Shown here: positions 43,377-48,328 of the stretch, in pieces | Layout of the letters: the number at the start of each line of letters is the position of its first letter | Numbering within the stretch: position 1 is the stretch's first letter | Assembly: GCA_022572465.1 (NCBI GenBank) | Contig: JACZVV010000007.1 | Location: 1 to 49,595 of the forward strand | Length of the DNA: 49,595 nucleotides | Reading direction: 5' to 3' | Source of the DNA: Chloroflexota bacterium | Lineage (GTDB): Bacteria; Chloroflexota; Dehalococcoidia; SHYB01 | Program-made: the position numbers and the translations under genes | Notes under the pieces: model-generated | Told to the model about the DNA's origin: nothing | The model's input: the letters and a program-made list of their open reading frames with translations, nothing else | Database searches by the model: none

Positions 43377-43563
43377 GGACGAGCAGCCGGGAGCGAGGGA
43401 CAAGAAGACCGCAATCGACGACCACCAAGAACCAGAGGGCCGTTCGACTCGGCGGCCCGGCGCCAGTGTGACGGACGTTGAGGGACCGGCTAAACTGTAT
43501 CGCGGTCTGGAGCCGGGCAAAAGGGAGCCTGTGACGACGCTGGCCCGATTCAAGGAGGCTTGA

Positions 43564-45129
43564 ATGAACACTACCGAGTTCCTCATGGTGACCAACGCGA
43601 TCGCGCCCGACCGCGAAGCAATCGTCTTTGAGAACAACCGGCTGACCTACGGCGATCTGAACGCGCGATCGAACCGGCTGGCCAACGCCCTGACGGGCAT
43701 GGGCGTTCAGCAAGGCGACCGGGTCGCCTTCATCGAGGTCAATACGAACCATTGCATCGAGACCTACTTCGCCTGCGCCAAGCTGGGCGCCATCTATGTG
43801 CCGCTCAACTTTCGGGCCAAGGCCGACGAGCTAACCTACATGATCCAGGACTCCGGGGCGTCGGTGGTGCTGGCCGGCGGGCGCTACGTGTCGACGGTCC
43901 AGGACATCAAATCCGAGATCGGCGCTGTCAAGCACTTTATCAGCTTGGACGACAAGTTCGATGGGTGGCTCGACTACGAACAACTCCTGGCGAGCGCCCC
44001 CGACGACGATCTGTTCACCGAGATCGACGACTCCGATATGACCATCCTGCTCTTCACCGCGGGCACCACCGGCAAGCCCAAGGGCGTGATGCTGCTGCAT
44101 CAGAACTTCTCCGAGTACGTGATCAATAACGTCACGCCGGCGGAGCCCGACGTGGCGGAGAAGAACATCCTCACCGTTCCCATGTACCACATCGCGGGCA
44201 TCCAGGCCGTCATCTCCTCCGTCTACGGCGGGCGCACGGTGGTCATCCAGCGCCAGTTCGACGCGGAGGACTGGATGCGGCTGGTCCAGGAGGAGCAGGT
44301 CGACCGGGCGATGATGGTCCCCACCATGCTGAAGCAGCTCATGGACGACGAGAAGTTCCAACAGTACGACCTGAGCAGCCTGAAAGTCATCACCTACGGA
44401 GCGGCGCCCATGCCCCTGGAGGTGATCAAGCGCGCCATCGAGGCATTTCCGGGCTGCCACTTCATCAACGCCTTCGGCCAGACGGAGTCGGCCGCCACCA
44501 TCACCATGCTGGCGCCGGAGGACCACGTCATCGAAGGGACCGCCGAGGAGAAGGAGAAGAAGCTCAAGCGCTTGGGCTCCATCGGCAAGCCGCTGGCCGA
44601 CGTCGAGGTCAGGATCATGGACGAGGAGGGCAGCTTGGTGGGCGCCGGCGAGGTTGGGGAGATCGTGGCGCGGGGCGCCCGCATCATGAAGGGCTACTGG
44701 AAGCAAGAGGAGGCTACCAGCGCCACCATCGACAAAGACGGCTGGCTCCACACCGGCGACCTCGGCTACCAGGACGAGGACGACTATATCTTCCTGGCCG
44801 GACGGGCCAAGGACATGATCAAGCGCGGCGGCGAGATGATTTCTCCTGAAGAGGTGGAGAACGTCATCCTGACGCACCCGAAGGTCGAGGACTGCGCCGT
44901 CATCGGCGTGCCCGACGAGACCTGGGGAGAGAGGGTACGTGCCGTGCTCGTCCTCAAGCCCGACGAAACGGTTGACGAGGAGGAGATCGTGGAGCTCTGC
45001 CGCTCTCGCCTGGCCAGCTTCAAGAAGCCCGAGTCGGTGGTCATCACCGATGAGATCCCGCGCAATCCCATGGGCAAGATCCTGAAGCGCGTCCTGCGCG
45101 ACCAGTTCAAGGAGCCCATCACGGCGTAG
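43564..45129 (+). CDS. AMP-dependent acyl-CoA synthetase/ligase
   Basis: LLFTAGTTGKPKGVMLLHQN; GWLHTGDLGYQDEDDYIFLAGRAKDMIKRGGEMISPEEVE; PRNPMGKILKR. Confidence 0.96.
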   Translation: MNTTEFLMVTNAIAPDREAIVFENNRLTYGDLNARSNRLANALTGMGVQQGDRVAFIEVNTNHCIETYFACAKLGAIYVPLNFRAKADELTYMIQDSGASVVLAGGRYVSTVQDIKSEIGAVKHFISLDDKFDGWLDYEQLLASAPDDDLFTEIDDSDMTILLFTAGTTGKPKGVMLLHQNFSEYVINNVTPAEPDVAEKNILTVPMYHIAGIQAVISSVYGGRTVVIQRQFDAEDWMRLVQEEQVDRAMMVPTMLKQLMDDEKFQQYDLSSLKVITYGAAPMPLEVIKRAIEAFPGCHFINAFGQTESAATITMLAPEDHVIEGTAEEKEKKLKRLGSIGKPLADVEVRIMDEEGSLVGAGEVGEIVARGARIMKGYWKQEEATSATIDKDGWLHTGDLGYQDEDDYIFLAGRAKDMIKRGGEMISPEEVENVILTHPKVEDCAVIGVPDETWGERVRAVLVLKPDETVDEEEIVELCRSRLASFKKPESVVITDEIPRNPMGKILKRVLRDQFKEPITA

Positions 45130-45142
45130 GAGACCCCACGGG

Positions 45143-45325
45143 GAGCAAAGATCGATCAGCGAAGCGGCGGGCGCACTCGAAAGCCAGCGCCTAGCCTTGG
45201 GCCGGAAGCCAACCCTGGGCCACGTTCCCTACGCGACGATCAAGGTCAACAAGCGCCGCCTGGCGCTCTTCGCACAAGAGGTGATGCCGCATTTCAGGAA
45301 GAATCCGGTGCTCGCGGACCGGTAG
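45143..45325 (+). pseudogene. C-terminal remnant, probably of a luciferase-like (LLM) flavin-dependent monooxygenase
   Basis: In frame from 45143: EQRSISEAAGALESQRLALGRKPTLGHVPYATIKVNKRRLALFAQEVMPHFRKNPVLADR*; LxLFAxEVMPHFR resembles the LLM C-terminus; no upstream body. Confidence 0.55.
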
Positions 45326-45420
45326 GCGCGCCGTTGGCCTGAGGAGGCTGCGCGGCGAGTGGGCGGAACAGGACAAGCCATTCCAGTTCCCGCGTTGATG
45401 AAGCGCCGGCGGCACATATC

Positions 45421-47259
45421 TCAGTGGTTTTCCCGGAGATACCGGACAATCTCCAACATGACCTTACAATCGACCTCATTGTACTTTGCGATGTCTTGCA
45501 TAAGTTCGATATCTTGAAGTTTAACGCCGTCCTTCGCTGCTTCCCCTGCACACCACCATGCGCCTGCCATTGCCCCGGTGCCATCTGCCGGGCCCTCCTT
45601 CCACCCGGTTTCAACTAAACCAAGTGACCTCATCGCCCTTGCGAAATCTTTGAGGCCAGTTTTGAAAGCGCCGCGGACGACAATCGGCTCTATTTCAACC
45701 ACTTGCAAAAGAAAATCGAACCACGGGAGAGGAGTCCAATTGTGTCCGCGTTGTCTGTTGAATGCCGATTCATCGTTGCTCTCAAGGACACCAGGTTCAT
45801 GACGAAACCAATGTATGAGCCTTGGCTCAAATTCGTGAGGACACAGGCGCTCTTTTACAAACCTCATATGTTCATACCATTCGTCAATGATCATTCTCTC
45901 TGCGGACTCAGTCAGTGAGTCAGCGATGAAACAACGGAATACCCACTGCTCATTTTCTACATGTCCGCATCCGATCATGAATATCAGCGGCTGGCCACCC
46001 ATGTCTGGGATGTTTGCGAATTCGTCTGCCTGGTTGTCTACGGTCTCGAAATCGACATAGAACTCCAACGGTGGGATTTGGTGCCATTCAGACCGGAGAG
46101 TGTTGATCATTGCTGGCCGAACCGGCTTATTATCGTCCGACCTGTTGACGTCCAAGATACGCTGCACAACATTTTGCCGGGAAGATCCACTAACCCCAAG
46201 AATCTGTGCACTCGCTTGTGGGTCGTCCCAAGATTCAACACCTTGCTGATGTGCAGTTACCCGACCTTCCGGGCCGACCCACCACAACTTCGTAAGCTCG
46301 CGTAGCGAATCCGCGATCTCGCCTTTCGCTTTGTGCCACGGGAAGTCTTCTTCATTACTCATATTGGGCCAAAGTTCAGGCACGGACGGTTTGGGCAATA
46401 CTTGCCAATTCGAACCCTGGCCACGCAACCGCCTTAGCCAATCAATCGCGTTTTTGACTCGATCTTCAAGCTGACCCTCAGGCAGCGACTCAGAGTTCGC
46501 TACTGACGCCAACCTTTCCATGCAATTGTGGCCCTTTAATGGGCTACCCCTAATGCGCTGCTGCCAACCTCTACCTAACAAGAATGAGTGGCTCGGCAAG
46601 TATCCCTGGAGTCTCCCAAGGGCCTGGTTGTACAAGAAAACTTGCCCCTTACCTGCCCTGGCTGAACCGCTGTTGAGAAGACCACCTTTCGCGTTCAGCG
46701 ACAAGCGTTGAAACTTAATATCAACCACAACATAGTGCCACGATGCGCTCTCCAAGTCACCCCCTGGAATCGACGCTTCACCCTCAGTCATGACTCCCGG
46801 GAAAAGCTTGTCGAACATGTCGCTGCGAACCAGCAGATCTGGAATTCCATATGTTTGGCTCTCGGCATTCCAGATTACGCCCCGATGAACAATAGGCGCG
46901 CCTCGCTGCATTGCCTCGAAGGTTGCTTCAGCCGTTGCCAGTTGGCGCGTTTGATCAGGTCTAGCATCCATTCGCTCTACACTAATCAAGCTACCCAAGT
47001 GATTCACCACCGCATCTTGGAATGCGGCGCTCTGCCCGAAGATGAAAAGAGTTAGGTTGGTTCTCTTGTCATATGTTGGAAGGGCCGTGTCACGCAAAAA
47101 CCCTGCTTGCTCTCCAAACCGATCCAGCCAATCAAGCAACGGATCTCTAATCAAGTAATTGCGGATGTCCGTTGCCGCGATCCATTGGTCCCAGTCTGCC
47201 TCAGACGTGGGCTTCATCAGAGTTCCATCGTCTCGGTGCGTCAACGCTTGTAAACCCAT
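45421..47259 (-). CDS. Putative dual nuclease: PD-(D/E)XK-like region plus C-terminal RNase H-like (PF13482/TM0106-type) exonuclease region
   Basis: GIPDLLVRSD...WHYVVVDIKFQRL (PD-DxK pattern); LEFYVDFETVDN (DxE) and YNEVDCKVMLEIVRYLREN (C-terminal DEDD-like motif). RBS AAAGGTGG before ATG 47259. Confidence 0.65.
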   Translation of the reverse strand: MGLQALTHRDDGTLMKPTSEADWDQWIAATDIRNYLIRDPLLDWLDRFGEQAGFLRDTALPTYDKRTNLTLFIFGQSAAFQDAVVNHLGSLISVERMDARPDQTRQLATAEATFEAMQRGAPIVHRGVIWNAESQTYGIPDLLVRSDMFDKLFPGVMTEGEASIPGGDLESASWHYVVVDIKFQRLSLNAKGGLLNSGSARAGKGQVFLYNQALGRLQGYLPSHSFLLGRGWQQRIRGSPLKGHNCMERLASVANSESLPEGQLEDRVKNAIDWLRRLRGQGSNWQVLPKPSVPELWPNMSNEEDFPWHKAKGEIADSLRELTKLWWVGPEGRVTAHQQGVESWDDPQASAQILGVSGSSRQNVVQRILDVNRSDDNKPVRPAMINTLRSEWHQIPPLEFYVDFETVDNQADEFANIPDMGGQPLIFMIGCGHVENEQWVFRCFIADSLTESAERMIIDEWYEHMRFVKERLCPHEFEPRLIHWFRHEPGVLESNDESAFNRQRGHNWTPLPWFDFLLQVVEIEPIVVRGAFKTGLKDFARAMRSLGLVETGWKEGPADGTGAMAGAWWCAGEAAKDGVKLQDIELMQDIAKYNEVDCKVMLEIVRYLRENH

Positions 47260-47284
47260 GATGCAGCCACCTTTGCTTCTTCTG

Positions 47285-48328
47285 TCACCCCGTCGTCACG
47301 CCGTCCCACTCGGGCTTGGGGGAGCGGGCCATGAGCTCGGTCACCGCCTGCTCCGGCTCCATCCCCTCGAACAGCACCTTGTGGGTGTAGGTCGTGATGG
47401 GCATCTCCACGCCCAGGTCGGCGGCCATACGCAGCGCCGCTACCGTCGTGTCGACCCCCTCGGCGACGTTGCGCATGTTTCCAAGGATCGCCTTCAGCGG
47501 CCGGCCCTTGGCCAGCTGCTCGCCGACGTAGTAGTTGCGGCTCAGCCGGCTGCTGCACGTGGCGATGAGGTCGCCGAGGCAGGCCAGGCCAGCGAAGGTC
47601 AGCGGCCGAGCCCCGGCGGCGACGCCCAGGCGGGTGATCTCCACCAGGCCGCGGTTGATGAACGCCGCCTTGGCATTGTCGCCGAAGCCCAGGCCGTCGC
47701 TCATACCGGCGCCGATGGCGACGACGTTCTTCAGCGCGCCGCCGAGCTCGACGCCGATGACGTCGGTGTTGGTGTACGCCCGAAAGAGGGGCGACATCAC
47801 GACCTCCACGACCCGGGCTGCCGTCGGTTCGTCGGCCGCCGCAACGACGGTGGACGCCGGATGCCCGTCGACGATCTCCCGCGCCAGGTTCGGCCCTGAC
47901 AGCACGCAAATGTTGCGGCGCATCCCCTCGGTCAGCTCCTCGGCCAACACCTGGCTCATCCGCTTGGACGTGTCGCGCTCCAGGCCCTTGGTCGCGCTCA
48001 CGATCAGCATCGAATCGTCCAGGCGCTCGCGCACGGCCCGGACGTTCTCTCGAAGCGAGCGGGAGGGGACCGCGAACAGGACGATCCCCGCGCCGGCCAG
48101 CGCCTCCTCGGCCGACGCCGTGACCCGCATAGCGGGCGGGAAGTCGTAATCGGGCAGGCGCAGGACGTTCTGCCGGTCGCGCGCCAGGGTCTCCGCCTCG
48201 CCGGCCGTGCGAGCCCACAGCGTCACCGGGACGTCCCGCCGGGCCAGCACGATTCCCAGCGTCGTGCCCCAGGTGGTGGTGCCGATGATGGCGACCTTCG
48301 TCTCCGGCCCCGATGCGACCGCGCTCAT
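47285..48328 (-). CDS. gpsA: Glycerol-3-phosphate dehydrogenase [NAD(P)+]
   Basis: VAIIGTTTWGTTLGIVLARRDVPVTLWAR...VSATKGLERDTSKRMSQVL...VLSGPNLAREIVDGHPASTVVA...GGALKNVVAIGAGMSDGLGFGDNAKAAFINRGLVEITRLG. ATG at 48328. Confidence 0.96.
   Translation of the reverse strand: MSAVASGPETKVAIIGTTTWGTTLGIVLARRDVPVTLWARTAGEAETLARDRQNVLRLPDYDFPPAMRVTASAEEALAGAGIVLFAVPSRSLRENVRAVRERLDDSMLIVSATKGLERDTSKRMSQVLAEELTEGMRRNICVLSGPNLAREIVDGHPASTVVAAADEPTAARVVEVVMSPLFRAYTNTDVIGVELGGALKNVVAIGAGMSDGLGFGDNAKAAFINRGLVEITRLGVAAGARPLTFAGLACLGDLIATCSSRLSRNYYVGEQLAKGRPLKAILGNMRNVAEGVDTTVAALRMAADLGVEMPITTYTHKVLFEGMEPEQAVTELMARSPKPEWDGVTTG

What the first reader, a model, noticed from the sequence alone, without database searches (positions are those of the whole stretch)
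45400..47275. Low-GC gene with two nuclease signatures: candidate defence or repair protein
Hand-counted rows 45661 and 46681 are 45% G+C, against 65% in row 44041. The gene sits between a truncated remnant and the der-plsY-gpsA block. The protein combines GIPDLL...VVVDIKF (PD-(D/E)XK nuclease-like, as in RecB/Cas4) with FYVDFET and YNEVDCKVMLEIVRYL (RNase H-like exonuclease of the PF13482/TM0106 type). Known: TM0106-type proteins join RecB-like and RNase H-like domains but their function is poorly defined. The long N-terminal and central regions here look divergent. Inference: a horizontally acquired single-gene nuclease system, possibly anti-phage.
Basis: partly seen in the sequence, partly recalled or inferred. 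Interest (0 to 1): 0.7.

Follow-up and report, generated by a model that had tools for sequence, protein, structure and literature searches.

The report
Iron-sulfur-free relative of TM0106 nucleases
A bacterium has acquired, at an otherwise empty spot between two ordinary genes, a single gene for a probable two-active-site DNA nuclease that belongs to an unannotated, helicase-free branch of a known but unstudied nuclease family; one relative is fused to the cutting subunit of a plasmid-defence system and another sits on a giant-virus-like contig, which makes a role against foreign DNA testable but not shown.

Summary
Window 45421-47259 (-) encodes 612 aa at 52% GC (third positions 55%; 33 other window genes average 86%). 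In a relative of the same family the flanking CoA-ligase and gpsA genes abut, so about 2.2 kb was inserted here, next to a remnant of a luciferase-like oxidoreductase gene. The protein alone hits no Pfam family. Homologues occur in about 65 genomes of its phylum (probably Chloroflexota), one Armatimonadota genome and one giant-virus-like contig. They align end to end with TM0106/COG2251 proteins (profile E 3e-23) and conserve both active sites: PD-(D/E)XK and a strictly invariant DEDDy exonuclease site. They lack the four invariant cysteines and the C-terminal helicase of the TM0106 proteins in this phylum. So this is an unannotated, iron-sulfur-free, helicase-free branch of a known kind. Defence is not shown: neighbours are neither conserved nor enriched in defence genes. 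But one homologue is fused in frame to JetD, the nuclease of a Wadjet type III operon. The window copy carries Gln at position 81, Glu in 27 of 28 aligned members, so its first active site may be weakened. Structure prediction failed. Most likely: a mobile, stand-alone DNA exonuclease.

The parts
45421..47259 (-). CDS, 612 aa, iron-sulfur-free TM0106-like dual nuclease
   Evidence: ORF; homologues; TM0106 homology
46615..47031 (-). PD-(D/E)XK (RecB/Cas4-like) core, residues 77-215: Q81 (Glu in 27/28), D141 (46837-46839), D180/K182 (46714-46716), Q206, Y210
   Evidence: conservation; alignment to TM0106
46144..46347 (-). middle region, residues 305-372, aligned with the TM0106 'LVAGxxxxQRRxLxxxGIxT' segment (helix-hairpin-helix-like, inferred)
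   Evidence: one search gives only a chance-level match of the TM0106 segment to the RNA polymerase alpha C-terminal domain
45433..46065 (-). RNase H-like DEDDy 3'-5' exonuclease domain, residues 399-609: D403 (46051-46053), E405, H483-W484, D515 (45715-45717), Y593, D597 (45469-45471)
   Evidence: 28/28 conserved; 10 of 28 family members hit PF13482
45125..47297 (.). inserted segment: replaced by 14 bp in the relative G001, where CoA ligase and gpsA abut
45194..45322 (+). C-terminal remnant of a luciferase-like (LLM) oxidoreductase gene, inside the inserted segment
   Evidence: 53-57% identity to longer frames in the same genome and in relatives; the LLM family name is from my reading of the sequence, not from a family search

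Best explanation
The gene encodes a stand-alone dual nuclease: an N-terminal RecB/Cas4-like PD-(D/E)XK domain, a middle DNA-binding-like segment and a C-terminal DEDDy 3'-5' exonuclease. It is a branch of the TM0106/COG2251 kind that lacks the iron-sulfur cysteines and works without the fused helicase. Shown: homology, conserved active-site residues, purifying selection in relatives, insertion of the gene in this genome. Inferred: it acts on DNA ends or single strands, the DEDDy domain removes nucleotides 3' to 5' and the PD-(D/E)XK domain (if active) nicks or trims the other strand, so that linear or damaged DNA is degraded or processed. It is kept as an accessory gene that moves between lineages. 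In one lineage the same module was joined to JetD, where it would degrade the plasmid that Wadjet linearises. In the window copy Gln81 may weaken the first active site, leaving the exonuclease as the main activity.
For: Full-length collinear profile match to TM0106 proteins; 17 of 28 members hit TIGR03491 (best 5.9e-18) and 10 of 28 hit PF13482 (best 2e-9). DEDDy residues invariant in 28/28, PD-(D/E)XK residues in 26-28 of 28. dN/dS 0.06-0.20 in nine close pairs. PF13482/COG2251 and DUF2779 are placed in the 3'-5' exonuclease clade of the RNase H-like superfamily (PMC3985635). Insertion at an empty site and composition. Homologues in 35 of 393 genomes of the class and 33 of 399 of the phylum, with no common neighbour. 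JetD fusion.
Against: No structure: both AlphaFold jobs gave low confidence (mean pLDDT 34 and 41), so neither fold is confirmed. No solved relative by sequence. No biochemistry of a COG2251/TM0106 protein turned up in the library searched, so polarity and substrate (DNA or RNA) rest on the wider superfamily. Gln81 could mean that the PD-(D/E)XK half is dead in this copy. The window protein pairs with the homologue of a same-family relative (96/94), which leaves open an old family gene that moved rather than a gene from outside.
Confidence: 0.6

Rival explanations
1. A single-gene defence effector against plasmids or phages: it degrades invading DNA (or DNA opened by another system) and moves between genomes as defence genes do.
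For: Sporadic presence and recent insertion. In-frame fusion to JetD3 in an operon with JetA3 and JetC3; JetD is the nuclease of the Wadjet plasmid-restriction complex (PMC10586767). One homologue lies next to a restriction-enzyme/helicase-like protein (L067).
Against: PADLOC hits near the gene are not above a control set from the same genomes. No PADLOC model hits the protein. Within genera the gene stays at one place next to ordinary genes. JetD3 was found in only 2 of 399 genomes of the phylum and 0 of 393 of the class, so one fusion cannot explain the family.
Confidence: 0.25
2. A DNA-repair or recombination nuclease (end resection or strand removal), a helicase-independent counterpart of the TM0106-helicase fusions.
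For: Stable location and purifying selection within genera. Full-length homology to the front part of long TM0106 proteins. A homologue on a giant-virus-like contig next to a HhH-GPD-type repair gene.
Against: No conserved linkage to repair genes and absence from about nine tenths of the genomes searched.
Confidence: 0.3
3. A decaying or inactive copy: recently inserted beside a gene remnant, with Gln instead of Glu in the first active site.
For: Gln at position 81 where 27/28 members (all but the window) and all 13 TM0106 proteins have Glu; the LLM gene in the same inserted segment is a remnant.
Against: The frame is intact over 612 codons and every DEDDy residue is kept.
Confidence: 0.15

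Closest known systems
TM0106 family RecB-like putative nuclease (TIGR03491; COG2251)
   Same: Same order of domains along the whole length; same PD-(D/E)XK and DEDDy motifs.
   Different: No cysteines at the four positions C11, C208, C211, C217 that are invariant in the TM0106 proteins compared; below the TIGR03491 cut-off (16.8 against 97.45 bits for the window); no helicase part, whereas 21 of the best 22 TM0106 hits here lie in open frames of 1108-1450 aa.
RNase_H_2 / YprB-type exonucleases (PF13482)
   Same: C-terminal DEDDy domain; 10 of 28 family members hit PF13482.
   Different: The window protein itself does not; it carries an extra N-terminal nuclease domain.
DUF2779 proteins (PF11074; DUF83 plus RNase H-like)
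   Same: By the literature also combine a DUF83 (PD-(D/E)XK-like) domain with an RNase H-like exonuclease domain (PMC3985635).
   Different: No hit to PF11074 in any of 28 members.
Wadjet JetD3 (DUF2220)
   Same: In G725 a JetD3 protein continues in frame into a member of this family.
   Different: Different fold family (Toprim); the window gene has no Wadjet neighbour.

Membership tests
TM0106 / TIGR03491 | Score above the curated cut-off (97.45 bits) | tested here: not met
   16.8 bits; 17 of 28 relatives match at E<=0.01
TM0106 / TIGR03491 | PD-(D/E)XK plus DEDDy domains in this order, collinear over the whole module | tested here: met
   (E 3.3e-23, 472 columns)
TM0106 / TIGR03491 | Four-cysteine (iron-sulfur-type) site, invariant in the 13 proteins compared | tested here: not met
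   no matching cysteine columns in the 28-member alignment
PF13482 RNase_H_2 | Match to the Pfam model | tested here: inconclusive
   window protein none; 10 of 28 relatives, up to 2e-9
RNase H-like DEDDy exonucleases | D-x-E, D, Y-x3-D residues | tested here: met
   28/28
RNase H-like DEDDy exonucleases | RNase H-like fold | tested here: inconclusive
   AlphaFold mean pLDDT 41
PD-(D/E)XK, RecB/Cas4 type | D, (D/E)xK, QxxxY and the upstream Glu | tested here: inconclusive
   D, DxK and QxxxY present; the upstream Glu is Gln in this copy
Known anti-phage defence system | Match to a PADLOC model or enrichment of defence genes nearby | tested here: not met
Wadjet | JetABCD operon at the locus | tested here: not met
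   no JetD3 match in the window genome; met only in G725
TM0106 / COG2251 and DEDDy exonucleases | Nuclease activity | not testable with these tools
   needs a biochemical assay

The most novel reading that the evidence does not exclude
This is an unrecognised family of mobile, iron-sulfur-free dual nucleases that serve as DNA-degrading effectors against foreign DNA. It usually acts alone, but has been recruited once as the second nuclease of a Wadjet complex (JetD fusion), so that the plasmid cut by JetD is degraded from its new ends; a giant-virus-like element also uses it.
Probability: 0.2. Interest if true: 0.75.

Novelty: new variant of a known kind. Interest (0 to 1): 0.45.

Why it matters
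TM0106/COG2251 proteins are widespread, and a full-text search of the paper library found no functional study naming them. A branch that carries neither an iron-sulfur site nor a helicase should be simpler to express and assay than the long fusions. The JetD fusion gives a concrete hypothesis (degradation of linearised plasmid after Wadjet cleavage) that can be tested by deleting one half of one protein.

Tried and rejected
Family scans of the window protein alone: no Pfam or PADLOC hit, only weak TIGR03491 and a chance-level PHROG. Plasmid and phage searches with the window protein: nothing; with the viral homologue in phages: nothing. With the JetD fusion, plasmid records match only in the JetD half. 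Sequence search of solved structures: nothing. A conserved operon partner: none; apparent 18-20-locus clusters appear to be shadow reading frames of the gene itself. A translin-like gene that overlaps the start in L005 (family name from reading the sequence) was not seen in other lineages. Defence-island enrichment: rejected with a 126-gene control. Direct repeats at the insertion edges: none of 8 bases or more. Other phyla could hardly be sampled: the one genome-contig scan used patterns from the window protein only, so the family may be wider than reported.

Full report
Observation. The window encodes a 612-aa protein at 45421-47259 on the minus strand. Its GC content is 51.9% (55.3% at third positions) against 65.9 +/- 2.3% (86.2 +/- 2.9%) for 33 other genes in the window, and the windows over it are the lowest-GC stretches of that length in the 49.6 kb. 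Both nuclease signatures are there.

Where it sits. On its left an acyl-CoA-ligase-like gene ends at 45129; on its right are gpsA, plsY and der. In G001, a genome of another genus of the same family, the orthologous ligase and gpsA abut: blastn pairs window 43551-45124 with L130 3963-5536, and window 47298-48299 with L130 5551-6552, so 2.17 kb in the window stands against 14 bp. The inserted segment also holds a remnant (45194-45322, +) of what looks like a luciferase-like oxidoreductase gene. No direct repeats of 8 bases or more were found at the edges. G001 has its own homologue elsewhere (51% identical, 70% GC). In the tree the two pair with support 96/94 but with long branches (0.66 and 0.59), while gpsA is 70% and the ligase 74% identical between the two genomes. 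Composition, site and divergence together point to acquisition in this lineage. An old family gene that moved is less likely, because its composition would then be expected to follow the host; in all four relatives measured, the gene's GC is at or above that of its surroundings.

Who has it. A profile of four members finds it in 35 of 393 genomes of the class and 33 of 399 of the phylum (some hits are fragments at contig ends). One further copy is in an uncultured Armatimonadetes genome. One is on a 54.7-kb IMG/VR contig of 32% GC that also carries an intein-bearing AAA protein, a Tet/JBP oxygenase, a glutamine-amidotransferase/SIS protein and a helicase, which looks like a giant virus. It conserves the same motifs at 36% identity. 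None was found in plasmid or phage records with the window protein.

What it is. The single sequence has no Pfam match, but 17 of 28 members match TIGR03491 and 10 of 28 match PF13482. A profile-profile alignment with TM0106 modules gives probability 99.5%, E 3.3e-23, over 472 columns from end to end. The DEDDy residues D403, E405, D515, Y593, D597 are invariant in 28 of 28; H483-W484, E488 and K537 are too. The PD-(D/E)XK residues D141, D/E180, K182, Q206, Y210 are kept in 26-28 of 28. Nine pairs of close homologues show dN/dS of 0.06-0.20, so the gene is under selection as a protein.

How it differs. The 13 TM0106 modules compared have four invariant cysteines (C11, C208, C211, C217 of the first row), the usual sign of the iron-sulfur site of Cas4/AddB/Dna2-like nucleases (from general knowledge); this family has no conserved cysteine at those positions. 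In this phylum the TM0106 modules are nearly always the front part of open frames of 1108-1450 aa (21 of the best 22), in line with the AAA repeats reported for COG2251 (PMC3985635); members of this family are mostly about 600 aa and alone. The window copy also has Gln at position 81, where the other 27 members and all 13 TM0106 proteins have Glu. By position this is the upstream acidic residue of the RecB-type site, so the PD-(D/E)XK half of this copy may be weak.

Defence or not. Among 126 neighbouring genes from 23 loci, 17 PADLOC models are hit at 1e-10, each by one protein (JetC of L121 was left out of that set); among 126 control genes from the same genomes 61 models are hit. Many PADLOC models are generic (kinases, helicases), so this shows no enrichment rather than a depletion. 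Neighbours are ordinary genes, shared essentially only within a genus apart from common enzyme families. There is one striking exception. In G725 (L121) a single open frame of 993 aa holds a full-length JetD3 (residues 38-372, E 3.5e-80) followed by a member of this family, directly after JetC3 and JetA3; a JetB-like frame lies between JetA and JetC (the stretch tested, read in one frame, had no PADLOC hit). JetD is the Toprim nuclease that cuts plasmids with JetABC (PMC10586767). JetD3 of this type was found in only 2 of 399 genomes of the phylum and 0 of 393 of the class, so the fusion is a single event and cannot speak for the whole family.

Mechanism. I commit to a stand-alone DNA exonuclease of the TM0106 kind. 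Shown: homology, conserved catalytic residues, selection, insertion. Inferred: 3'-to-5' polarity (from the superfamily), DNA as substrate, and a role in clearing or processing linear DNA, with defence as one possible use. Neither fold is confirmed: only two or three sequences could be given to the structure predictor and the models had mean pLDDT 34 and 41.

Verdict. A real, horizontally acquired gene; a new variant of a known but unstudied kind; defence possible, not shown.

Noticed in passing
L121:1068-4049 (-) (G725:C46): In-frame fusion of Wadjet JetD3 with a member of this nuclease family, directly downstream of JetC3 and JetA3.
   Followed up: partly
L104:7944-9932 (+) (IMGVR_UViG_3300003890_000058): A giant-virus-like contig carries a homologue at about 33-36% identity, near a helicase, an intein-bearing AAA protein and a Tet/JBP oxygenase.
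   Followed up: partly
window 45194-45322 (+): Remnant of the C-terminus of what looks like a luciferase-like oxidoreductase gene inside the inserted segment.
   Followed up: partly
L005:3315-3965 (-): In G001 a 216-aa gene that reads like translin overlaps the start of the homologue by a few bases; not seen in other lineages, family not tested.
   Followed up: no
L059-L062 (genus g252, about 6 Mb genomes): A more distant group of about 555 aa (25-27% identical) with the same motifs; one of these genomes (G639) has a second, still more divergent copy.
   Followed up: no
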